Shown: in pieces, positions 9,199-31,640 of the stretch | How positions within the stretch are numbered: position 1 is the stretch's first letter | How the letters are laid out: the number at the start of each line of letters is the position of its first letter | From: Actinomycetota bacterium | GTDB taxonomy: Bacteria > Actinomycetota > AC-67 | Assembly: GCA_005884515.1 (NCBI GenBank) | Contig: VAWS01000069.1 | Span: 1-33,236, forward strand | Direction of reading: 5' to 3' | DNA: 33,236 bases | Program-made: the position numbers and the translations under genes | Notes under the pieces: generated by a model | The model's input: the letters and a program-made list of their open reading frames with translations, nothing else | Told to the model about the DNA's origin: nothing | Database searches by the model: none

Positions 9199-9957
9199 CT
9201 ACTCCACGTTGCTGGACTGCTCCGGCTTCGGCGCGACCGGAATCACGCCGGGCAGGCCCACGACCAGCGTGCTACCCGGTGCGCCGCCGATCGCCTGCAG
9301 CATCCGCAGCTGCAGCAGTGCTGGGTTGTCCTTCACCGCGCGCGCGGCGTTCGCCAGGTTGCGCAGGGCTGCCGTCTCACCGCGCGCCCTCTCGAGCGCG
9401 GCCAGACCCTCCTGCTTCGCCTGAACTACCTGCGCGAAGATCTTCTTCAGCTCGCCGGGGAACATGATGTCCTTGATGTCGGCGGCGAGCAGCCGCAGGC
9501 CGAGTGCTGCGATCGGCTCGGTTGCGGTCTGAAGGAGACCCTCCCCGAACCGCGAACGGTTCTCGAGGAGCTCGTCGATCTTCGCGCCGCCAACGATGTC
9601 CCGAAGCGCCATCTGCAGCGTCAGGTACAGGGCCGACATCGCGTCCTGCGTCTTGTTGAACGCGACGTCGAGGTCGGCTACCTCGTACTGGGCGACGATG
9701 CTGACCTTCAAGGTCACGCCGTCCGAAGACAGGACCTCCTGACCCGGGATCGTCACGAAGGCAGGCCGGATGTCGACCGGCCGGACCAGTGTGTCGCGCG
9801 CGCGTAGCAAATAGCGGCCCGGCTCGAGCACGCGAATGAATCGACCCTCGCGGTACAGCATGCCTCGCTGGAACTCGAAGATCACGACCTTCAGGAACGG
9901 ACCGCGACGAACACCGCTCCGGGGGCCGAAGAACATCTGCGAACGCATCATCATCAT
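9199..9957 (-). CDS. SPFH/Band 7 (slipin, stomatin-like) membrane protein
   Basis: A 252-residue protein of the stomatin/prohibitin superfamily, which forms membrane-bound rings. The start is the first of four consecutive ATGs at 9957, preceded by AGGAGGA. A short hydrophobic stretch (PFLKVVIFEF) opens the SPFH core, which runs through EGRFIRVLEPGRYLL, VTIPGQEVLSSDGVTLKVSIVAQYEV and ALRDIVGGAKIDELLENRS. A charged Ala/Glu-rich helix (QAKQEGLAALERARGETAALRNLANAARAV) follows, then a Pro-rich end. Unlike most slipins it has no long N-terminal membrane helix. It is the first protein gene downstream of the tRNA array on the same strand, about 145 bases after the last tRNA-like unit. Confidence 0.88.
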   Translation of the reverse strand: MMMMRSQMFFGPRSGVRRGPFLKVVIFEFQRGMLYREGRFIRVLEPGRYLLRARDTLVRPVDIRPAFVTIPGQEVLSSDGVTLKVSIVAQYEVADLDVAFNKTQDAMSALYLTLQMALRDIVGGAKIDELLENRSRFGEGLLQTATEPIAALGLRLLAADIKDIMFPGELKKIFAQVVQAKQEGLAALERARGETAALRNLANAARAVKDNPALLQLRMLQAIGGAPGSTLVVGLPGVIPVAPKPEQSSNVE

Positions 9958-10099
9958 TGCTCCTCCTTTCCTTTTCTTCGTTGTTGTCTCGAGACTGTGG
10001 TGCGCAACGCTCGAAGGGTCACAAGCGCGAAGCGGAGATCCGAAGATCTGCAAGGCTTCGAGCTTGCTGCGGGAGACCGCCGACCCTTGCGAGCGCGCG

Positions 10100-10190
10100 C
10101 GGTGGGGGAGTCGAACCCCGGTCGCCAACCGATAGAGACGGACCGATGGGCAAAGCTGCATCGACGATGTCGACGCCGCTGCTGGGTGCT
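10100..10190 (-). pseudogene. Degenerate tRNA-like unit at the end of the array
   Basis: The 3' half has a good T-arm (GGGG TTCGACT CCCC, about 10103-10120), and a possible D-stem GATG/CATC lies upstream. The candidate anticodon arm is weak: only three firm pairs, loop TCTCTAT, which would read TCT (Arg) but has C at position 33. No 5' acceptor strand matches the 3' ACCGCGC. It looks like a tRNA that has lost its 5' part. Boundaries are approximate. Confidence 0.35.
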
Positions 10191-10197
10191 CCCGTCG

Positions 10198-10269
10198 AGC
10201 CGCGCGCAGGACTCGAACCCGCTCCTGCCGTTTACGAGACGACTGCTCTTCCCGATGAGCTATCGCGGC
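10198..10269 (-). tRNA. tRNA-Thr (CGU)
   Basis: The acceptor GCCGCGA pairs with GCGCGGC except for an A7-G66 mismatch. The D-arm GCTC/GAGC and the T-arm GCGGG TTCGAGT CCTGC are normal. The anticodon arm GTCGT CTCGTAA ACGGC reads CGT. CCA is not encoded. It lies 4 bases after the Leu unit. Confidence 0.85.
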
Positions 10270-10273
10270 CGTG

Positions 10274-10353
10274 TGCCCCGGGAGGGAGGCGAACCCCAAC
10301 GACTTGCGGCACCGGTTTCTGAGACCGGCGCGTCTTCCGATTCCGCCACCGGG
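10274..10353 (-). tRNA. tRNA-Leu (CAG)
   Basis: About 80 bases with the long variable arm expected of tRNA-Leu. The acceptor GCCCCGG/CCGGGGC is perfect, and the anticodon arm CCGGT CTCAGAA ACCGG reads CAG. The T-loop is TTCGCCT, so the nearly invariant A58 is replaced by C. CCA is not encoded. Confidence 0.87.
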
Positions 10354-10360
10354 GCAGGTT

Positions 10361-10434
10361 CGCCGCCAGAGAAGGGATCGCACCTCCGTCTCCCGGGTTT
10401 CAACCGGGCGCTCGTCTGCGTGAGCTATCTGGCG
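10361..10434 (-). tRNA. tRNA-Phe (GAA)
   Basis: The acceptor CGCCAGA/TCTGGCG is fully paired and the D-arm is GCTC/GAGC. The anticodon arm CCCGG TTGAAAC CCGGG reads GAA. The T-loop is TGCGATC: position 55, normally pseudouridine, is G. The discriminator is G rather than the usual A. CCA is not encoded. Confidence 0.85.
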
Positions 10435-10442
10435 AGACGTCG

Positions 10443-10514
10443 TCGCGGGTGCGGGGATCGAACCCGCATCGCCGGATTATGAGACCGGCCGGGCACCACG
10501 CCCTGCCACCCGCA
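10443..10514 (-). tRNA. tRNA-Met (CAU), type unresolved
   Basis: The anticodon loop CTCATAA sits on a stem with a T31-T39 mismatch. Six firm acceptor pairs (GCGGGT/ACCCGC) are preceded by a weak T1-G72. The D-arm GGGC/GCCC has only a 5-base loop, and T8 is missing. The T-arm GCGGG TTCGATC CCCGC is good. The three G-C pairs that mark an initiator anticodon stem are absent. It could be elongator Met, or an Ile tRNA with a modified C34; sequence alone does not decide. Confidence 0.7.
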
Positions 10515-10519
10515 TCGCG

Positions 10520-10591
10520 CCTCGGGCCAAGGATTCGAACCCCGATCCGCACGTTCAGAGCGTGCTGTGCTTCCGGTTGCACCAGCCCGAG
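10520..10591 (-). tRNA. tRNA-Gln (CUG)
   Basis: The acceptor CTCGGGC/GCCCGAG is perfect and the D-arm is GTGC/GCAC. The anticodon arm GCACG CTCTGAA CGTGC reads CTG. The T-arm CGGGG TTCGAAT CCTTG has two G-U pairs. The discriminator is G, as is usual for Gln. CCA is not encoded. Confidence 0.9.
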
Positions 10592-10598
10592 ATTTCAG

Positions 10599-10672
10599 CT
10601 GTCAGGGTGGGAGTCGAACCCACACAGTCGCGGAGTAACGGTCCGCCGCGCTACCCGTTGCGCCACCTGACA
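10599..10672 (-). tRNA. tRNA-Asn (GUU) with C33
   Basis: The acceptor TGTCAGG/CCTGACA gives seven pairs, and the discriminator is G as in other Asn tRNAs. The anticodon arm GCGGA CCGTTAC TCCGC reads GTT, but position 33 is C instead of the almost invariant U. The T-arm GTGGG TTCGACT CCCAC is perfect. CCA is not encoded. Confidence 0.85.
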
Positions 10673-10677
10673 ATGAG

Positions 10678-10751
10678 AGCGCCCGGAGAGATTCGAACTC
10701 CCACCACCCAGGGTCGAAGCCTGGTGCTCTTGTCCGTTGAGCTACGGGCGC
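10678..10751 (-). tRNA. tRNA-Arg (UCG)
   Basis: The acceptor GCGCCCG/CGGGCGC is perfect, with D-arm GCTC/GAGC. The anticodon arm CCAGG CTTCGAC CCTGG reads TCG. The T-arm is GGGAG TTCGAAT CTCTC. The discriminator is T, unusual for Arg. CCA is not encoded. Confidence 0.88.
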
Positions 10752-10760
10752 TTGTCTTCG

Positions 10761-10831
10761 TGGGTTGCCGAGGACTCGAACCCGCTCGTCCGGGTAAGAG
10801 CCGGATGCTTTCCCCGCCAAGCTCGCAACCC
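10761..10831 (-). tRNA. tRNA-Lys (CUU) with damaged T-stem
   Basis: The acceptor GGGTTGC/GCAACCC is perfect and the anticodon arm TCCGG CTCTTAC CCGGA reads CTT. Position 8 is G instead of U. The variable region is only three bases. The T-stem GCGGG/CCTCG has two mismatches (49-65 and 50-64). Function is plausible but doubtful. Confidence 0.75.
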
Positions 10832-10836
10832 CATGG

Positions 10837-10907
10837 TCGGCACGGATGGAGTCGAACCATCGTCTTCCGCGTATCAGACGGATGCTCTCCCGTTGAGCCA
10901 CGTGCCT
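10837..10907 (-). tRNA. tRNA-Ile (GAU) with A1-G72
   Basis: U8 and the D-arm GCTC/GAGC fix the numbering, which makes the first acceptor pair A1-G72 followed by six normal pairs (GGCACG/CGTGCC). The anticodon arm TCCGT CTGATAC GCGGA reads GAT. The T-arm GATGG TTCGACT CCATC is perfect. CCA is not encoded. Confidence 0.85.
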
Positions 10908-10938
10908 TCGTCGCGATATGGATTTTTCAAGGTCTTCG

Positions 10939-11011
10939 TGGACCCGGTCGGATTCGAACCGACGTTCCCTGGTTGCAAGCCAGGCGCTCTTCCCGATTGA
11001 GCTACAGGCCC
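10939..11011 (-). tRNA. tRNA-Ala (UGC)
   Basis: The most canonical member of the array. Acceptor GGGCCTG/CGGGTCC, D-arm GCTC/GAGC, anticodon arm CCTGG CTTGCAA CCAGG reading TGC, T-arm GTCGG TTCGAAT CCGAC, discriminator A. The acceptor has wobble pairs at 3-70 and 6-67, so the G3-U70 identity element of Ala is present. A 31-base gap, the longest in the array, separates it from the Ile unit. Confidence 0.93.
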
Positions 11012-11015
11012 ATCG

Positions 11016-11087
11016 TCGAGACGGAGGGAATCGAACCCCCACCCTCCGGATCCCAAATCCGGTGCGCTTCCGTTACGCCACATCTCG
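11016..11087 (-). tRNA. tRNA-Pro (UGG)
   Basis: Acceptor CGAGATG/CGTCTCG, D-arm GCGT/GCGC, anticodon arm CCGGA TTTGGGA TCCGG reading TGG with G37, and T-arm GGGGG TTCGATT CCCTC. The discriminator is A, as expected for Pro. CCA is not encoded. Confidence 0.92.
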
Positions 11088-11091
11088 TTCG

Positions 11092-11164
11092 AGTGGACGA
11101 CGGGAGTCGAGCCCGCGTCTTCACCGTGGCACGGTGACGTGCTGCGCCGCTGCACCACGCCCAC
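11092..11164 (-). tRNA. tRNA-Gly (GCC), first unit of the array
   Basis: Acceptor GTGGGCG/CGTCCAC, D-arm GTGC/GCAC, anticodon arm TCACC GTGCCAC GGTGA reading GCC. The T-loop is CTCGACT, so T54 is replaced by C. It lies only 4 bases from the Pro unit and directly follows a terminator-like hairpin at 11172-11197. Confidence 0.88.
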
Positions 11165-11171
11165 AAGTAGA

Positions 11172-11197
11172 AAGCTCCCTTCTCGCGAAGAGAGCTT
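11172..11197 (-). terminator. Hairpin directly upstream of the tRNA array
   Basis: On the minus strand AAGCTCTC pairs with GGGAGCTT (8 pairs, one G-U) around a 10-base loop and is followed by TCTACTTG. It lies 22 bases after the stop of a small open frame and 8 bases before tRNA-Gly. It may terminate that small transcript, attenuate the array, or be a processing signal. Confidence 0.45.
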
Positions 11198-11218
11198 CGT
11201 CAAACGGAACGACGAGAA

Positions 11219-11362
11219 CTACTCGCTCGCGGGACCTCCGATCTGCGCGCATGTCGGGGCGGCAACCGTTTCAATAAAGACGTGCGCATCGAGCGCGCGC
11301 TCGAGACCGAGCCGCAACCGGAACACGTTGGCACACATCGTTCGTCTCATCGCTTCCTCACT
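11219..11362 (-). CDS. Possible small protein upstream of the tRNA array
   Basis: An open frame of about 48 residues runs from an ATG near 11362 (MSEEAMRRTM) to a TAG at 11219-11221. An inner ATG five codons later (MRRTMCANVFRLRL) has GAGGA just before it and would give about 43 residues. The product is mildly basic then hydrophobic (RLGLERALDAHVFIETVAAP) with no recognised domain. A TACTAT hexamer lies about 25 bases upstream. Its position between a promoter-like site and the hairpin before the tRNAs suggests a leader peptide or small gene. Coding is not certain. Confidence 0.28.
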   Translation of the reverse strand, partial: SEEAMRRTMCANVFRLRLGLERALDAHVFIETVAAPTCAQIGGPASE

Positions 11363-17080: not shown

Positions 17081-20000
17081 TCAGGGCGCGTTGGCGGCCA
17101 GCCACGCGCGCCCTTCGGCGCAGTCGCGCTTGAAGTCGCAGAAGCGGCACTGCGGGCCCGGCGTCGCCTCGAACTTGCCGGCGGCGATCGCGGTAAGCGC
17201 CCCGTCCAGCTCGGCCCGGATCTCGCCGGCCGAGCGCGCCGCGTACGAGCGCTCCGTCTCGTCGCCGAGATACACGAACGTCACCGTCAGCTCGTCGGGC
17301 TTCTTGCCCCAGATCTCTTGCGCGGCCAGCGCATACAGGTCGAGCTGCCATCGCTCGGCGCCCTCTTCCTCGGGACCGCGGCCGCTCTTCCAGTCGACGA
17401 TCTCCCAGCCGCCTTCGGGCCGCTCGAACACGGCGTCCATGCGGCCTTGCACGATGTGGTTCCCCACAACGAGCGAGATCGGCCGCTCCGCCATCATCGG
17501 CGGTACGCCCGAGAAGCGGGTCTTGCGGAACGCTTCCTTCAGCCGCGTCATCGTTGCTTGGTCGAGCTCCGGACCGCGCTCCTCGAAATCCTCCGGCTCG
17601 ATCAGCGTGCCTTGGCCCTTGCCCTCTTGCTCGATCCACGAGTGAACGACGGTTCCGATACGTGCGGCGCGTGACGACTGCCGCGGGAGCGGGCGGATCA
17701 CCGACCAGTAGAACTTCTTGGGGCACTGCGCGTAGGTCACGATCGACGTCACGTTCAGCGCGCGCGGGCGGGCCGGCGGGGCCGGCTCGATCGGCGGGAA
17801 CAGCGATTCGTCCGGCGTGGTGCGTGCGCGTGCCTGCTCGACCGTTGCCGCGATGCCGTCGGGGAACAGCGGGTCGGGATCGCGCTTCGCCGCAAGCGGC
17901 CAGACCTGCGCGCGTTGCGCGCGGCGTTCGATCAGGGGGTTCTCTTCGGGGGCATCCGATTCCACGATGACCTCCACGTCACCGAAGTCTCGCACCTCGC
18001 GCCAGTACTCGCTGGGTCCGAGCGGCTCGGTGAGCGCTTCGAACATCCCGGACGGGTAGTACCAGTGGGCCGCCGTACACACGAGGCGCTTTCGCGCGCG
18101 CGTCACGACGACGTAGAACAGCCGGCGCTCCTCTTCCTCCTGTCGGACCTTCAGCTCGTCCGTGTACTGCGACAGGTTGCCCATGAAGCGGGGGAACACT
18201 TCGGCGTCACCACGCAGGTCGGTCGGGATGTGTTGCGGCGACGTGTACGCGTTCCACGTGCGGGAGATGTCGGGAAAGATCTGCGAGCGACGGCCGCGCG
18301 CGAGCCCCGGCACGACCACAAGATCGAACTCGAGGCCCTTGGCTTGGTGGATCGTCATCAGCTTCACGGAGTCTTCGTCGGTGGGCTGGGCGGCTTCGAT
18401 CTCTTCATCGGCTTCTTCGATCGCGTCGAGCCACTCGATCAACGCGCCCAGCGTTGGTTCGCCTTCGAGCGGCTGGAACGCAGCGATGCGGTCGAGGAAG
18501 TTTGCGAGGTTGTGGCGCGCCGCCGGCGCGGCGTTCGACGGCGACGCGTCGAGCTCGGCCACGATGCCGATCATGTTGAGAGCTCGCTGCGCGAGCTCGG
18601 GCAGCGGCAGGTGACTCTGGGCGCGCAGCTCGGTCAGCATCGCGTTGAAGCGCGTGAGGCGCGCCCGCGCCTCGTCGCTCAGGCCCTCGACTTCGTCTGC
18701 CGCCGCGACCGCTTCCGCGAGGGAGAAGATCACGTCGCCCGGCGCGTCGAGATCGCCGAGCTGTTCCTTCAGGGAGCGGTTCTTCTCGGCTGCTCGGCGA
18801 GCGATCAACGCGAGATCGCGGTGGCCGATCCGCCAGCGCGGGCCGCGCAGCAGGCGCGCAAGGGCAACGTTGCGCATCGGGTCTTCGAGCACGCGCAACA
18901 GCGAAACCAGGTCGATGACTTCCGGCATCTTGAGCAGCCCGCCCAGCCCTATCACTTCGAAGGCGATGTCGCGCGCGCGCAGCTCTTCGACGAGCGGCCC
19001 GAACAGGCGCTTCTTGCGGCACAGGATCGCGATCTCGCGCCACGGCGTCGTTCCGGCGGCGTGTGTGCGCGCGATCTCCTCGGCGATGCCTGCGGCTTCG
19101 GCCGATTGGTCGGGCCACAAGCCGACGGCGACCGCGCCGTCGCCGAGGTCCGGGAAGTGCCGCAGGACCTTGTCCGCGGCACGCCGCTGCGGCGACACGT
19201 GGTCGATCAGCTCGTTCGCCAGCGACAGGATGCGGGCGCCGGAACGGAAGTTGACCTCGAGCGGCAAGATGCGCGCCTTCGATCCGTCGCCTTGCACGAA
19301 CTGCTCGGGGAACGCGAGAAGGTTGTGCAGGCTGGCGCCGCGCCACGCGTAGATGTTCTGGTCGGGGTCGCCGACGGCCATCACCGGGTAGCCGTCCGGC
19401 ATCAGCCGCTTCAACATCCTCGCTTGCGCGATGTTCGTGTCTTGGTACTCGTCGAGCAGCGCGAACCGGTAGCGCGACAGGAAGTCGGCCACGACGCGCG
19501 GGTCGGCGGCGATCTCGCTGGCGAGACGGATCTGGTCGCCGTAGTCGAGCACGCGGCGCGCTTCCTTCGCCTGCTGGTAGGCCTCGACGACGCCGGCGAG
19601 CTCGATGCGCTTCCTGGACGCGTCGACGATCTTGGCGGCGATCTTGTCTGCGGAGTTCTTGATATTCTCGAGGAACTGCTCGTCCCACGCGACGATCTCG
19701 CGCGGATCGACCAAGTGGTTCGAGCAGTCGTCGGCGAGCTGCCGGACGTACGAGACGTGCCAGAGCGTACGCGCCTCCATGTACTGGTACGTGCGCGCGG
19801 AGTACAGGGCCTGATCGCGTCGCGCACGCGACGGAGCAGGCTTTCGGCGGCTTTGTTGGTGAACGTGAGGCCGAGGATCTCGTTCGCCTTGGCGTGTCCG
19901 TTCACGATCAGCCACACGATGCGCGCAGCCATCACGGCGGTCTTGCCGGAGCCCGCGCCGGCGATCAGGACGCTCGGTTCCAGCGGCGCGCTGATCGCGG

Positions 20001-20085
20001 ACCACTGCTGCTTCGTCGGCCATCGCTCGCCGAGCGCCTCGTAGACCTCGACCGGCGCGTCGGTGACGAACATGCTCGCGGTCAC
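17081..20085 (-). pseudogene. adnB: AdnB-like helicase-nuclease, frameshifted near the N-terminus
   Basis: AdnB is the main motor of the actinobacterial AdnAB end-resection complex. The GTG at 20085 overlaps the adnA stop (GTGA). The first frame gives Walker A (LIAGAGSGKT) and motif Ia (LGLTFTNKAAESLLRRVRDAI); near 19800-19825 the reading shifts frame. The second frame continues through YGDQIRL, Walker B LLDEYQDT, VGDPDQNIYAWRG, LEVNFRSG, TIHQAKGLEFD and RRLFYVVVTRARK. A RecB-type nuclease follows (VHSWIEQ, GRMDAVFE, IVDWKSG), with four cysteines (QCPKKF; QCRFCDFKRDC) as in Fe-S nucleases. Motif Ib (usually T-HAFA) and about 35-40 residues around it are absent at the frame change. The remaining 900 residues look intact, which favours a recent lesion or a sequencing fault. 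Confidence 0.88.
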
Positions 20086-22919
20086 AGCGGCACCTCGTCG
20101 CCTTCGGGCCAGACGGGGCACAACGTCTTGAAGCGGCACCACTTGCAGTCTGCGCCGGCGGACGGCGCGAATCGCTCCGCGCGGATGCCATGCACAAAAC
20201 CTTCGAGACGTGCCTGAGCCTTCTCTCCGAATTCCGGATCCTTGGTCGGGTCGACTTGGGCTCGCATGAATCCGCCGCTTTTCGGCATCGCGCCGAGATA
20301 GGCGAGCTGAAGGATCTTCGGTTTGCCTAACTTCGCAAGCTCGGGGACACGGGTCAGCGCAAGATAGTAGGAGGCCAGCTGCAGGTCCTCTGCGGCTTCG
20401 TCGTCCGTTTTGGCATTGCGGCCCGTCTTGTAGTCGATGAGCCTCACCATCGAGCCTGCGAAGCGAACCACCCGATCGATGCGACCTCGCATAACCGCTC
20501 CATCGATCGAAAACTCGAAGGCAACTTCGCTCGCGAGCGTCTCGAGATTTCCATCTGTGGCGAGCCAACGCCGAAGCATCTCCCGGCAATCGAGCTTTCG
20601 GCGGTGCTCGATCGCAACGCTTTCGAACACGGTTGGGTCCCACAGCTCGTCGAGAGCCGCGAGCAACGCTTCTTCCGTGCCCGCGATCTCGCCGCGCGCG
20701 CACCGGTCGACGATGTCGTGCACCCACGTGCCGACGAGCATCTGGTGGCTGGTGTCTGGATCGAGCCCGAGCTCGACTTGATACAGGTACTGCAGCGCGC
20801 AGTTGTCGTATGAGGACAGCCGCGAGTAGCTGGTGCGCAGATCTTCCGCGACGAGCGGCGTTCCGGGATCGGTCCACTCGTGCTCGTACCACCAGGTTTG
20901 TGTGTCGACGCCCGGAAGACGCGCGATGTGGTCGAGGGCGTCGCGGCGTTCGGCGTCGGCGATAGACGCGTCGCGCATCGTGCGTCGCCACGTCGCTTCG
21001 GCCTCGTCCCGCGTTAGCGGTTCCGGCCTCGCCGGCGCCGTGCCCCATTCGAGCCCGAGGTGATGCAGGAACGATGATGGCACTTGCGGTTCGCGTTGGC
21101 TCGACTCGCGCGCGCACGTGAGCAGCATGTGCCGGCGCGCGCGGCTTGTCGCGACATTGAAGAGCCGCCGCTCTTCCGCGAGCCGGTTCATCTGCCGGTC
21201 GAACGGCGACGCAGGCGCCAGAAGGTCGCGCAGGTCGAGCATCGCGCGCTTGTCGCGCGGGTCGGGGAACTCGCCCTCGACGCAGCCGGCAACGATGACG
21301 GCTTCGTGTTCGGTGCCCGCCGCGTTGTGGGCGGTGAGCAAGCGGACTGCGCCGGGCCTGCGCTCGTCCGGCATGTGCCACGGCTCGGGGCCGAACTCGA
21401 CGCCTTCGAGCACGTCGAGGTAATCGTCGAACTGCTTGCCGGGGCGGCGGTCGCTGAACCGCTCGATCGCCTGCGCGAACGCAGTCACCGCGTCGAGCGC
21501 GTCCTCGTCCTCGTCGGCGACGGCCTGTCGCAAATAATCGAGCGACTCCCACAGGAACCAGAAGACCTGGTCCGGACGCTCGCGCATGTTGCGGTCGGCT
21601 ATGTCGTCTATCAGCGCGCGCAGACGATGCAGCTGCGCGACGATCTTCTCCGGCAGCTCACCTGCCGGTGCGTCGATCATCGCCGCCAGCGACGCGCCGC
21701 GGATGTGCGCCTCGCGCCGAAGCGCGCGCACCTCGTACGGGTCGAGCTCGCACACCGGCGACGCGAGCAGCTTCGGCAGCCGGTCTTCGCGTTCGGCGGG
21801 CCGCAGCGCTGCGCGCGCAAGCTCCACCAGCGGGATCAGCACGGGTTCCATCGCGAGCGGCCTGTTCTCGCCGACCACCACGAACGGGACGCCTTCGCGA
21901 TCGAGCGCGCCCCGGATCGCGCGCGACGCGGGTCCGTACCGCCGCACGATGATCGCGATGTCGCCCCACCCGATGCCTTCGCGCGCGCGCAGCCGGTGGC
22001 ACTCGCGCGCGATCGCGTCGGCCTCCTCGGTGAGGTGATCGAACTGCCAGGCCTTCGTTTCGGGCGTCCCGCGATGGCTGCTCGACAGTTCGATCGTCTG
22101 CGTGCCGGGAAACGCCTTTGCGAACGCGGCGCCGGCGTCCGGCAGGCTGCCGCGGAAGCCGTAGATGCGCGCGTCGGGGTTGACCGTCGCAGTGACCGAA
22201 CCGCCAGTGACGAAGAGCGCGCGCAGCAGCTCGTGCTGCGCGGGCGAGACATCTTGGTAGTCGTCGACGAGCAGGTGCTTGGTCTCGGCACGGACCTCGT
22301 CGGCTACGTCTTGGCTTTCGTTCAGCAGCTGCCATGCGCGCGCGATCACGTTGGCGTGGTCGACGACGGCGTCGTCGCGCGCGTCCAGCGTGGTTAGGTA
22401 GCGGCGGAAGAATCGCGCGGCTTCCTCCAGATCGGGCCGGCCGGCTTGGCGCGCCAGATCCTCCAGCTGCTCGGGCGACTTCAATGCGTCTTGCGCGCGC
22501 AGCACGAACTCACGGAGCTCTTCGACGAAGCCGGCCAAGCGGGTCTGCTTCGGGAACGCCGACCAATGCTTCTGCTCGGTGGGGTCGTCGAGCATCTCGC
22601 GCACCAGCGTGAACTGCTCGGGACCGGTGAGCAGCCCGGGCTCTCGGCGGTAGCCGAGACGCCGGTAGTAGTTGCGCAGGAGGCTGAGGCCGTAGGAATG
22701 CCAGGTCGTCACGCGGACCTGGTCCGTGGAGGTGCCGAGCTCGAGGAGGATGTCCTGCGAGAGCGCGCGAGCCGCGCGCCGGCTGTGGACGAGGAACAGG
22801 TTCCCCTTCTCGTTCGCACGGACGAGGTCCAGGTATCGGTTCCGCAGGTGGGTCGTCTTCCCCGACCCGGCCGGGCCCACGACGAGAGAAGCCCCAGCTA
22901 GTTGGATATTCCCGAGCAC
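20082..22919 (-). CDS. adnA: AdnA-like helicase-nuclease subunit
   Basis: A 945-residue partner of AdnB in double-strand break resection. The N-terminal half is a UvrD-type motor with Walker A VVGPAGSGKT and Walker B LLVDDYQDV. The usual DE of motif II is DD here; I recall a similar DD in mycobacterial AdnA. Later motifs are NPDARIYGFRG, SSHRG, LLTAHNAAGTEHEAV (divergent motif V) and RRLFNVATSRARR. The C-terminal half is a RecB-family nuclease with GTWVHDIVD, GRIDRVV and LIDYKTG. Four cysteines (YDNCALQ; ADCKWCRFKTLC) match an Fe-S clasp. It overlaps adnB by GTGA and follows uvrD2 by 33 bases. Confidence 0.88.
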   Translation of the reverse strand: MLGNIQLAGASLVVGPAGSGKTTHLRNRYLDLVRANEKGNLFLVHSRRAARALSQDILLELGTSTDQVRVTTWHSYGLSLLRNYYRRLGYRREPGLLTGPEQFTLVREMLDDPTEQKHWSAFPKQTRLAGFVEELREFVLRAQDALKSPEQLEDLARQAGRPDLEEAARFFRRYLTTLDARDDAVVDHANVIARAWQLLNESQDVADEVRAETKHLLVDDYQDVSPAQHELLRALFVTGGSVTATVNPDARIYGFRGSLPDAGAAFAKAFPGTQTIELSSSHRGTPETKAWQFDHLTEEADAIARECHRLRAREGIGWGDIAIIVRRYGPASRAIRGALDREGVPFVVVGENRPLAMEPVLIPLVELARAALRPAEREDRLPKLLASPVCELDPYEVRALRREAHIRGASLAAMIDAPAGELPEKIVAQLHRLRALIDDIADRNMRERPDQVFWFLWESLDYLRQAVADEDEDALDAVTAFAQAIERFSDRRPGKQFDDYLDVLEGVEFGPEPWHMPDERRPGAVRLLTAHNAAGTEHEAVIVAGCVEGEFPDPRDKRAMLDLRDLLAPASPFDRQMNRLAEERRLFNVATSRARRHMLLTCARESSQREPQVPSSFLHHLGLEWGTAPARPEPLTRDEAEATWRRTMRDASIADAERRDALDHIARLPGVDTQTWWYEHEWTDPGTPLVAEDLRTSYSRLSSYDNCALQYLYQVELGLDPDTSHQMLVGTWVHDIVDRCARGEIAGTEEALLAALDELWDPTVFESVAIEHRRKLDCREMLRRWLATDGNLETLASEVAFEFSIDGAVMRGRIDRVVRFAGSMVRLIDYKTGRNAKTDDEAAEDLQLASYYLALTRVPELAKLGKPKILQLAYLGAMPKSGGFMRAQVDPTKDPEFGEKAQARLEGFVHGIRAERFAPSAGADCKWCRFKTLCPVWPEGDEVPL

Positions 22920-22952
22920 GTAAGCAGCCTTTCGATTTCGACGCAGCGGATA

Positions 22953-24890
22953 CTAACCGGCTGCTGTGACAGGAACCCCCGGTGCGGGAAAAGTTGCGAC
23001 GATTTTCATGATCTGCTCGCCGTAGCGTTGCATCTTGAGCGGCCCGACACCCGAGATCGCACGCAGTGCAGCGCGCGTGTCGGGATGGACGCGTTCGATC
23101 TCGGCGAGCGTGGCGTCGTGGAAGATCACATACGCGGGCAGTCCCGCCTCCTTCGCGGCGGTCGCGCGCCAGGTCTTCAGCGCCTCGAACAGCGGGCCGC
23201 CGGTGCGAGCCGCGGGCTTCGCGCGAGCAGGCACCACGTCGGCCACCGGCCGCTCGGACGGGGGCGTGATCTCCGATAGGAACGGACTCGGCCGCGGCTT
23301 CGAGCGGCGCTCGCCGTCGCGCGCGCGCGCGAACGAGATGGCGAGGTACCCCTTCGCGCGCGTGATGCCCACGTAGAAGAGACGGCGCTCTTCCGCCCGA
23401 TCCTCGTCCGACGTAGACAGCGCGAACGGCAGCTCTTTATCTTCTAGGCGCGGCAGGAACACGGCTTCGAACTCGAGGCCCTTCGCTCGGTGGAAGGTCA
23501 TCAGCTGCACACCGCGTCCTTCCTCTTCCGACGCGAACCGCGCGCGCAGGTCCGCAAGGAACGCCTCCATGTCTTCGCCGGGGAACTCGGCGGCAAGAAC
23601 CACCAGCCGCTCGAGATCGGCTTGCCGGGTCGCTTCGTCGCCGCCGTCGTACTTGCCGCGCGGGTCGTAGCCGAGCTCGGTGGCGACCCGCACCGCAGCG
23701 ATGGCGACGGGGCCGGTCGCGGCACGCGCCCTCACCGCGAAGCTGCGTGCCGCCGGCCGTTGCAAGAACGAGCCGTCTCGGACCTGGAACGGGATGTGCG
23801 CGCGCGCGAGTTCTTCCTCGAAATCTTCCGAGCGACCGTTGATACGGAACAGCACGGCCATGTCCTCGTACGCGAAGCCGTCGGAGTGCAAGCGCCGGCA
23901 CTCCGAGACGATCCAGGCGATCTCCTGGCGGCCTGTCTCGAAGTCGCGTAGCTCGTGGCGCGCGCCCGACGGCTTCGTCGCGCGCAGCGTCTTCTTCGAG
24001 CCACGGAGGCGCGGTACCAAGCGGTTTGCAACCGTGAGGATCTCCGGCGTGGACCGGTAGTTCTCCTCCAGCGTGACGATGGTCGTGTGGTCCCAGCGAC
24101 CCGCGAAGCGCAGCAGGTGCTCGGGCGTCGCGCCGGTAAAGCCGAAGATGCTCTGGTAGTCGTCGCCGACCACGCACACGTCGTCCCGCGCGCCGACCCA
24201 CAGGTCGAGCAGCGTCTGCTGCAGCAGGTTGACGTCCTGGTACTCATCGACGGTGAACGCGCGGTACCGGCCGCGCACGACGCCGAGCGCGCGCTCGTCC
24301 TCCTGCAGAATAGTGACCGTCTGCTCGAGCAAGTCCTCGAAGTCGATCATCCCCGCCGTGCGCCTCCGCTGCTCGTAAGTCACATAGACGCGGTGCATGA
24401 GGTCGGCGGGGATCGGCGGCTCGTGCGGCCCGAGGCGTTCCAGGTAGTCGCGCGCTGGGATGCGACGGTTCTTGGCCCACTCGATCTCTCCGGCGAGATC
24501 GCGCAACGCCGTGAAGCGGTACGGCATCGGCAGCGACTGCGCGATCCGATGCAGCACCTGACCTTTGTGCGAGAGGATCTCGGGCTGCTCGGGCGAGAAA
24601 CGGCGGAACTGCGCCAGGGCTTCGGCGTGGAACGTGTTGGCGCGCATGCCGGTCGCGCCCAACGCCTGCAACCTGCTGCGCATCTCCCCCGCGGCCTTCG
24701 CCGTGAACGTCACCGCCAAGATCTCCCCGGGCATGAACGCGCCGGTCAGGACCTGGTTCGCGATGCGGCGCGTGATGGTGGTGGTCTTCCCGGTCCCGGC
24801 GCCGGCAAGGATGGCGACCGGACCGGTGACCGCTTCGACCGCCTCGATCTGGGCGTCGTTCAGGCCGTCGAAGATCGGGTTCTCCCCCAT
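22953..24890 (-). CDS. uvrD2: UvrD2-like DNA helicase with C-terminal HRDC domain
   Basis: A 645-residue superfamily 1A helicase that unwinds DNA 3' to 5' in repair. The seven motifs are intact: ILAGAGTGKTTT, AVTFTAKAAGEM, ANTFHAEAL, FTVDEYQDV, VVGDDYQSIFGFTGA, LEENYRSTPEI, LMTFHRAKGLEFE, RRLFYVGITRAKG. A linker rich in Pro, Ala and Arg leads to an HRDC domain (LFEALKTWRATAAKEAGLP, AYVIFHDATLAEI, ISGVGPLKMQRYGEQIM). The HRDC domain and the adjoining adnA and adnB genes are the basis for UvrD2 rather than UvrD1. The tetracysteine region reported in mycobacterial UvrD2 is not visible. It is first in the operon; a -10-like TACTGT lies 7 bases before the ATG. Confidence 0.92.
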   Translation of the reverse strand: MGENPIFDGLNDAQIEAVEAVTGPVAILAGAGTGKTTTITRRIANQVLTGAFMPGEILAVTFTAKAAGEMRSRLQALGATGMRANTFHAEALAQFRRFSPEQPEILSHKGQVLHRIAQSLPMPYRFTALRDLAGEIEWAKNRRIPARDYLERLGPHEPPIPADLMHRVYVTYEQRRRTAGMIDFEDLLEQTVTILQEDERALGVVRGRYRAFTVDEYQDVNLLQQTLLDLWVGARDDVCVVGDDYQSIFGFTGATPEHLLRFAGRWDHTTIVTLEENYRSTPEILTVANRLVPRLRGSKKTLRATKPSGARHELRDFETGRQEIAWIVSECRRLHSDGFAYEDMAVLFRINGRSEDFEEELARAHIPFQVRDGSFLQRPAARSFAVRARAATGPVAIAAVRVATELGYDPRGKYDGGDEATRQADLERLVVLAAEFPGEDMEAFLADLRARFASEEEGRGVQLMTFHRAKGLEFEAVFLPRLEDKELPFALSTSDEDRAEERRLFYVGITRAKGYLAISFARARDGERRSKPRPSPFLSEITPPSERPVADVVPARAKPAARTGGPLFEALKTWRATAAKEAGLPAYVIFHDATLAEIERVHPDTRAALRAISGVGPLKMQRYGEQIMKIVATFPAPGVPVTAAG

Positions 24891-30731: not shown

Positions 30732-31562
30732 TCAGGCAGACTTGCGCGCGCGGCTGCTCGAACGTTTCTTCGTCGACTTGCGCTTGGAGCCGCCGCTCTG
30801 CTCGACCGAAGCCTTCAGCGCTTCGATCAGATCGACGACCTTCGGGGTCTCCTTCGCTTCCTCGTGGATCGTGATCGTCTGTCCCTTGGCCTTCTTCTTG
30901 ATCAAGCCCTCGACACGCTTCCGGTACTCGTCGTGATACTTGCCCGGGTCGAAGTCCGTCGCTAGCGAGTCGATCAGTTGCTTGGCCATCTTCATCTCGC
31001 GGTCGGCCAGTCGCTGCTGCTTCGGCAGCCCGCGGAGCTCATCGACGGACACGATCTCGTCGGGGAAATACATGGTTTCGAGCGCCAGCGCGCGCTCGTA
31101 CGGCCTGATCGCCGCGAGGTACTCCTTCGTCCTGATGACCACGCGGCCGATCGCGACCTTGTCGCTGTCCTTCATCGCCTTGAGCAACAACGAGTACGCC
31201 TTGTCACCGCCGGTGTCCGGGGCGAGGAAGTACGTGTGCTCGTAGTAGATCGGATCGATCTGCTCCAGCTCGACGAAGTCTTCGATGTCGATCGTGTGCG
31301 TCGCCTCCGGCGTCAGCTTTTCCAGTTCCTTCGGCTCGATGACGACGTACTTGTCGTCGCCGATCTCGTAGCCCTTTGCGATCTTCTCGTAAGGAACTTC
31401 CCGGCCGGTCTTCTCCGAGACGCGCTTGTACCGGATGCGCGCGCCGGTCTTCTCGTCGACCTGATGGAATGCGATGTCCTTCGGCTTCACCGCGGTGAAA
31501 AGCTTCACGGGGACGCTGACGAGCCCGAAGTTGATCGCGCCGCTCCAGATGGCACGTGCCAC
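30732..31562 (-). CDS. ku: Ku, DNA end-binding protein of non-homologous end joining
   Basis: About 276 residues. Bacterial Ku is a homodimeric ring that binds broken DNA ends and recruits LigD. The conserved opening ARAIWSGAINFGLVSVPVKLFTAV is followed by VSEKTGREVPYEKIAKGYEI, the Ku core EDFVELEQIDPIYYEHTYFLAPD, KVAIGRVVIRTKEYLAAIRPY and LETMYFPDEI. A Lys/Arg/Ser-rich tail (GGSKRKSTKKRSSSRARKSA) is typical of actinobacterial Ku and binds DNA. I prefer the GTG at 31562 to that at 31571, because AGGAGG stands 8 bases before it. No ligD gene lies in the window. Confidence 0.95.
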   Translation of the reverse strand: MARAIWSGAINFGLVSVPVKLFTAVKPKDIAFHQVDEKTGARIRYKRVSEKTGREVPYEKIAKGYEIGDDKYVVIEPKELEKLTPEATHTIDIEDFVELEQIDPIYYEHTYFLAPDTGGDKAYSLLLKAMKDSDKVAIGRVVIRTKEYLAAIRPYERALALETMYFPDEIVSVDELRGLPKQQRLADREMKMAKQLIDSLATDFDPGKYHDEYRKRVEGLIKKKAKGQTITIHEEAKETPKVVDLIEALKASVEQSGGSKRKSTKKRSSSRARKSA

Positions 31563-31640
31563 GACGACCACCTCCTGGCAGTGCTTTACCCGGGCGCGAG
31601 GTGCGAAAACACTCGCTTCAGCCGGATGAAAGTGGCCAGG

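What the first reader, a model, noticed from the sequence alone, without database searches (positions are those of the whole stretch)
10198..11164. Compact array of twelve tRNAs, one per amino acid
Twelve tRNA genes lie head to tail on the minus strand: Gly, Pro, Ala, Ile, Lys, Arg, Asn, Gln, Met, Phe, Leu, Thr. Most gaps are 4-9 bases and the largest is 31. No amino acid is repeated, and none of the genes encodes CCA. Actinobacterial tRNA genes are usually scattered. Dense one-of-each arrays are known from some phages, plasmids and actinobacterial mobile islands, but no mobile gene is visible here. This may be a second, auxiliary tRNA set, for example one that resists or decoys tRNA-cutting toxins. 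That role is inference.
Basis: partly seen in the sequence, partly recalled or inferred. Interest (0 to 1): 0.85.

Follow-up and report, generated by a model that had tools for sequence, protein, structure and literature searches.

The report
Spare tRNA set beside RNA-repair slipin
A soil actinobacterium carries twelve divergent extra tRNA genes directly in front of a structured RNA and a slipin gene of a kind that elsewhere sits in RNA-repair operons, and some viral contigs carry a similar tRNA array-slipin-RNA ligase arrangement, so it is probably a backup tRNA set used when the cell's own tRNAs are damaged.

Summary
The twelve tRNA genes are real. They are not the housekeeping set. Nine of the twelve anticodons have a separate gene elsewhere in the genome, to which the array copies are only 63-74% identical. 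The array is conserved, in the same place, in the other held genome of the genus. The adjacent slipin has no close relative in the family's three other genera.

A covariance model built without the window finds that RNA here and nowhere else in the window (E 1.5e-9). The RNA-slipin pair occurs in other phyla, twice inside RtcR-slipin-RtcB-RtcA operons. The only slipin relatives found in viral contigs sit behind a 19-tRNA array and before RtcB.

Six of twelve array tRNAs carry C38 in the anticodon loop, against 0 of 34 housekeeping tRNAs, recalling the loop changes reported for phage tRNAs.

Best reading: a backup tRNA set built into a slipin RNA-repair-type module, probably resisting tRNA-cutting nucleases. 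The genomic association is shown; expression and function are inferred.

The parts
11219..11350 (-). possible 43-aa leader ORF upstream of the array (candidate only)
   Evidence: open frame MRRTMCANVF... ending in a stop before the hairpin; no homologue or expression tested
11171..11198 (-). 12-bp hairpin just before the first tRNA; processing site or attenuator unknown
   Evidence: RNA fold; the whole 201-nt leader is not unusually stable (z -1.5)
11091..11164 (-). tRNA-Gly (GCC), C38
   Evidence: ARAGORN, Rfam 51.5 bits, loop
11015..11087 (-). tRNA-Pro (TGG)
10938..11011 (-). tRNA-Ala (TGC)
10834..10907 (-). tRNA-Ile (GAT), C38, apparently with encoded CCA
10760..10831 (-). tRNA-Lys (CTT), C38, weak score
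   Evidence: (37.5 bits)
10677..10751 (-). tRNA-Arg (TCG), C38
10598..10672 (-). tRNA-Asn (GTT), C33 and C38
10519..10591 (-). tRNA-Gln (CTG)
10442..10514 (-). tRNA-Met (CAT), weakest score
   Evidence: 30.9 bits
10362..10434 (-). tRNA-Phe (GAA), C38
10273..10355 (-). tRNA-Leu (CAG)
10197..10269 (-). tRNA-Thr (CGT)
10001..10198 (-). slipin-associated structured RNA: hairpin domain, T-arm, long stem with TTGCAG...CTCCGC internal motif
   Evidence: covariance model built without the window, E 1.5e-9; covariation; fold z -4.6
9199..9957 (-). slipin / SPFH (Band 7) protein, 252 aa
   Evidence: Pfam PF01145 E 7e-27; 96% identical in sister genome

Best explanation
The array is an auxiliary tRNA set forming the 5' part of a slipin / structured-RNA module of the kind found in Rtc-type RNA-repair operons. 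Shown: array, RNA and slipin gene are consecutive and co-directional, with almost no gap up to the RNA; the RNA-slipin pair is conserved across phyla and twice lies in RtcR-RtcB-RtcA operons; tRNA array-slipin-RtcB recurs in a viral contig. Inferred: the twelve tRNAs and the RNA are transcribed together when tRNAs are being cut (toxins, phage infection or other translational stress); the spare tRNAs, with changed anticodon loops, keep translation going; the slipin and its RNA form a membrane-bound scaffold for repair or handling of damaged RNA, with RtcB supplied from elsewhere in the genome.
For: Nine of twelve anticodons are redundant with housekeeping genes and the copies are only 63-74% identical to them. 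Array, RNA and slipin are colinear in the sister genome. The RNA is confirmed by a model built without the window and by covariation. The RNA-slipin pair lies in RtcR-RtcB-RtcA operons in L095 and L096. A viral contig has array-RNA-slipin-RtcB in the same order, and related viral contigs have arrays with RtcB. C38 in 6/12 array tRNAs versus 0/34 housekeeping, recalling loop changes in phage tRNAs. By analogy, in Anabaena a tRNA operon, rtcB and a slipin are all repressed by TrcR, and the Salmonella rtc operon is activated by tRNA fragments. Cognate codons are mostly common, against rare-codon supply.
Against: No expression data. No promoter recognised. RtcB is not in cis. Only the genus and one viral element combine array and slipin; other cellular relatives lack the array. 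Some array tRNAs score poorly and the array evolves faster than housekeeping tRNAs, which also fits decay. C38 was noticed after inspection.
Confidence: 0.5

Rival explanations
1. A remnant of a phage or plasmid tRNA array that landed beside a slipin module by chance and is slowly decaying; the adjacency has no function.
For: Array tRNAs differ between sister genomes at 7 of 374 sites versus about 4 of 1290 in housekeeping tRNAs. Met and Lys score weakly. Best single-tRNA matches in the phage and plasmid collections include tRNA arrays such as L098 and L102.
Against: All twelve still pass the tRNA model, the tRNAs change less than the flanking DNA (93-96%), the spacing to the RNA is nil, and the same order recurs in a viral contig.
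Confidence: 0.22
2. Decoys: the tRNAs are sacrificial or inhibitory substrates that soak up anticodon nucleases and are not used for translation.
For: Some tRNAs are poor canonical tRNAs, and Asn has C33 instead of the otherwise invariant U33 of this genome's tRNAs. The authors of PMC7790460 raise a competitive-inhibitor role for the YrlA tRNA-like domain.
Against: Changed cleavage-region loops fit resistance better than attraction; most tRNAs look chargeable, for example tRNA-Ala keeps G3:U70 (sequence).
Confidence: 0.12
3. Ordinary translation supplement or part of the housekeeping set.
For: Arg-TCG and Leu-CAG were found only in the array in this incomplete genome.
Against: Nine of twelve are redundant, strongly divergent from the housekeeping copies, and no comparable array was seen among the tRNA places listed for the other genera of the family (list truncated).
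Confidence: 0.08
4. The tRNAs act mainly as 5' processing signals that release the slipin RNA from the transcript.
For: The RNA begins at the end of tRNA-Thr.
Against: One tRNA would do; twelve different isotypes are not needed, and most relatives have no tRNA there.
Confidence: 0.05

Closest known systems
tRNA array units of mycobacteria, their phages and plasmids (PMC5966550, PMC12803027)
   Same: Dense co-directional array, redundant with and divergent from chromosomal tRNAs, with changes in the anticodon domain; C38 is frequent in the M. avium plasmid array
   Different: 12 rather than at least 20 genes; joined to a slipin RNA-repair-type module; lies in the same chromosomal neighbourhood in two genomes of the genus
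Band-7/SPFH RNA-repair modules with a tRNA-like RNA (Burroughs and Aravind 2016, recalled; paper not held) and Rtc operons (RtcR-RtcB-RtcA)
   Same: Slipin preceded by a T-arm-bearing structured RNA; relatives lie in RtcR-RtcB-RtcA operons
   Different: No ligase or RtcR in cis here; a twelve-tRNA array sits in front of the RNA
Anabaena trn operon and TrcR regulon (PMC10272220)
   Same: Silent extra tRNA operon, rtcB and a slipin under one regulator
   Different: There the slipin is at a separate chromosomal locus; no array-slipin linkage and no regulator identified here
Phage tRNAs that evade anticodon nucleases (PMC10264068)
   Same: Loop substitutions relative to host isoacceptors
   Different: Bacterial locus; which nuclease, if any, is unknown

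Membership tests
tRNA array unit | At least 20 tRNA genes (PMC5966550) | tested here: not met
   12 genes; definition
tRNA array unit | Density of at least 2 tRNAs per kb | tested here: met
   12 genes in 968 bases
tRNA array unit | Redundant with the genome's other tRNAs | tested here: met
   9 of 12 anticodons
Band-7 RNA-repair module with tRNA-like RNA | SPFH/Band-7 protein | tested here: met
   PF01145
Band-7 RNA-repair module with tRNA-like RNA | Structured tRNA-like RNA directly upstream | tested here: met
   identity with the RNA of the 2016 paper could not be checked
Band-7 RNA-repair module with tRNA-like RNA | RNA ligase in the operon | tested here: not met
   No RtcB match among the window proteins scanned and both genomic RtcB copies lie on other contigs
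Rtc operon | RtcR and a sigma-54 promoter | tested here: not met
   No sigma-54 consensus in the window and no RtcR match among the proteins scanned
Nuclease-resistant tRNAs | Anticodon-loop changes relative to host isoacceptors | tested here: met
   C38 in 6/12; C33 in Asn
Nuclease-resistant tRNAs | Actual resistance to cleavage | not testable with these tools
   Needs a biochemical assay

The most novel reading that the evidence does not exclude
Bacteria and phages share a cassette in which an array of nuclease-resistant spare tRNAs, a slipin and its scaffold RNA (with RtcB in cis or trans) form one tRNA-damage response that both replaces and repairs tRNAs.
Probability: 0.35. Interest if true: 0.8.

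Novelty: new variant of a known kind. Interest (0 to 1): 0.62.

Why it matters
What redundant tRNA arrays do is an open question (PMC12803027 calls them only a putative antidefense system). Physical linkage of an array to an RNA-repair-type slipin and its RNA, in a bacterium and again in viral contigs with RtcB, ties the arrays to tRNA damage and gives a small, direct system to test. The conserved slipin-associated RNA gave no match in Rfam release 15.

Tried and rejected
Housekeeping-set explanation rejected. Sigma-54/RtcR-type promoter before the array: no match in the window. Sigma-70 promoter scan: none. YrlA (Ro60 Y RNA) match at 27.7 bits overlaps tRNA-Ala/Pro and is far below its gathering score of 69; rejected. 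Array-wide relatives in phages and plasmids: only single-tRNA matches. The four tRNAs beside the Omnitrophota slipin look like ordinary spaced tRNAs, not an array. Slipin in phage records: none for the window protein. Other Actinomycetota slipin loci have no tRNAs nearby. The covariance model does not score the viral RNA significantly, although its fold has a similar layout. The key 2016 paper was not held. No structure prediction was run: the SPFH fold is clear from Pfam.

Full report
Observation. All pass Rfam's tRNA cut-off. Gaps are 2-8 nt with one of 30. tRNA-Ile appears to encode CCA (ARAGORN ends it ...GACCA); the other eleven do not.

Is it the housekeeping set? No. The window lies in a 2.39-Mb genome of 248 contigs, 83% complete, with 47 tRNA matches, 35 of them outside the array. 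Pro-TGG, Ala-TGC, Ile-GAT, Lys-CTT, Asn-GTT, Gln-CTG, Met-CAT, Phe-GAA and Thr-CGT all have a separate gene. The array copies are only 63-74% identical to those same-anticodon genes. Gly-GCC, Arg-TCG and Leu-CAG were seen only in the array, but the genome is incomplete; the sister genome and two other family genomes have a separate Gly-GCC gene. Most cognate codons are common in nine window genes, so rare-codon supply is not the reason.

Conservation. The other held genome of the genus (contig VAYV01000044, an uncultured actinobacterium MAG) has the last five array tRNAs (its contig ends there), the following RNA and the slipin in the same order. It aligns colinearly with window 10612-3723 at 93-96%. 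The five tRNAs differ at 7 of 374 sites, against about 4 of 1290 for housekeeping tRNAs (the housekeeping total is approximate). So they are constrained, but less than housekeeping genes. The three other genera of the family have no close relative of the slipin. No comparable array was seen among the tRNA places listed for them (list truncated).

Directly downstream on the same strand is a slipin (SPFH/Band 7) gene, 9199-9957. Between tRNA-Thr and the slipin lies an element with a tRNA-like T-arm. The same kind of element precedes slipin relatives in Omnitrophota and Acidobacteria. From six such sequences, without the window, I built a covariance model. It finds one place in the window, 10001-10198 minus, E 1.5e-9, and the upstream region of most relatives. 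E-values from this tool are rough. On a seven-sequence alignment 91% of pair cells are standard, 31 of 56 pairs show changes on both sides, no shuffle of 500 reaches this, and sliding the partner destroys it. Relatedness inflates the shuffle control, but the slide control keeps relatedness. The window RNA folds 4.6 s.d. below shuffles. No Rfam family matched this RNA, in the window or in relatives.

The module elsewhere. Slipin relatives at E 1e-40 are patchy: 4 of 297 genomes in the phylum, 5 of 396 and 9 of 384 in two other phyla, at about 40-59% identity outside the genus, which looks like lateral transfer. In two loci (L095, L096) the RNA-slipin pair sits in an operon with RtcB and RtcA, divergent from RtcR. 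A Citrobacter plasmid slipin has rtcR upstream, a T-arm-like sequence before it and a nucleotidyltransferase downstream, though that RNA does not score significantly with the model. In this genome RtcB exists on two other contigs, not beside slipin.

Array plus slipin again. None of the cellular relatives outside the genus has an array. But the only two slipin relatives found in viral contigs, evidently one element seen twice, lie directly behind a 19-tRNA array on the same strand. Between array and slipin is a T-arm-bearing structured RNA. The next genes are RtcB, an HNH endonuclease and a phage portal protein. Other viral contigs with close RtcB relatives carry arrays of 14 and 21 tRNAs without this slipin. 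So array, RtcB and slipin recur together.

Anticodon loops. Six array tRNAs (Phe, Asn, Arg, Lys, Ile, Gly) have C at position 38; none of 34 housekeeping tRNAs of the genome does (Fisher p 1e-4). Against 77 isotype-matched tRNAs from four genomes (both genus members included) the count is 2 (p 4e-5). The M. avium plasmid array has C38 in 9 of 25. Phage tRNAs are reported to carry loop changes predicted to block VapC and other nucleases (PMC10264068). The feature was noticed after inspection, so the p-values are descriptive.

Mechanism. Shown: order, strand, spacing, conservation, module recurrence, loop signature. Inferred: co-transcription, induction by tRNA damage, resistance to nucleases, and slipin as a membrane scaffold for RNA repair. 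Support by analogy: in Anabaena a silent tRNA operon, rtcB and a slipin are all repressed by TrcR (PMC10272220), and in Salmonella the rtc operon is activated by tRNA fragments (PMC7790460). Weak points: no promoter recognised, no RtcB in cis, some array tRNAs look degenerate, and relaxed evolution fits decay too.

Known or new. By the formal definition this is not a tRNA array unit (12 genes, minimum 20), though it is otherwise alike. It meets two of the three features I used for the Band-7 RNA-repair module but has no ligase beside it. That module with a tRNA-like RNA was, as I recall, described by Burroughs and Aravind in 2016; the paper was not held, so the RNA itself may already be known. 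The fusion of an auxiliary tRNA array to it was not found in the papers searched. I therefore call it a new variant of a known kind.

Noticed in passing
L148:3361-6737 (viral contig IMGVR_UViG_3300035681_000111): The viral array seems to hold more tRNAs than programs detect, because many have unusual T-loops (for example GGGGCAGCACCC or GGTGCAATTCC instead of GGTTCGAATCC). ARAGORN finds 19 and Rfam at least one more; the gaps look tRNA-like.
   Followed up: partly
window 11171-11350: A 43-aa open frame followed by a strong hairpin lies directly before the array; it could be a translation-sensing attenuator, or chance.
   Followed up: partly
window 17081-24890: Three neighbouring UvrD-type helicase genes, two fused to PD-(D/E)XK nuclease domains (AdnAB-like), with a Ku gene at 30732-31571: a DNA-end-repair neighbourhood.
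   Followed up: no
L057:3570-7523 (Citrobacter freundii plasmid): rtcR, a sigma-54-like promoter, a T-arm-bearing sequence, a slipin and a nucleotidyltransferase without RtcB: apparently another variant of the slipin repair module.
   Followed up: partly
L098 and L101 (mycobacterial plasmids): C38 is common in the M. avium plasmid array (9 of 25) and present in 4 of 20 tRNAs of the Mycolicibacterium plasmid array; whether C38 is a general mark of mobile tRNA arrays was not tested.
   Followed up: partly
L042:3964-5400: A divergent RtcB paralogue lies among polysaccharide-biosynthesis genes (flippase, sugar transferase, glycosyltransferase) in the window's own genome.
   Followed up: no
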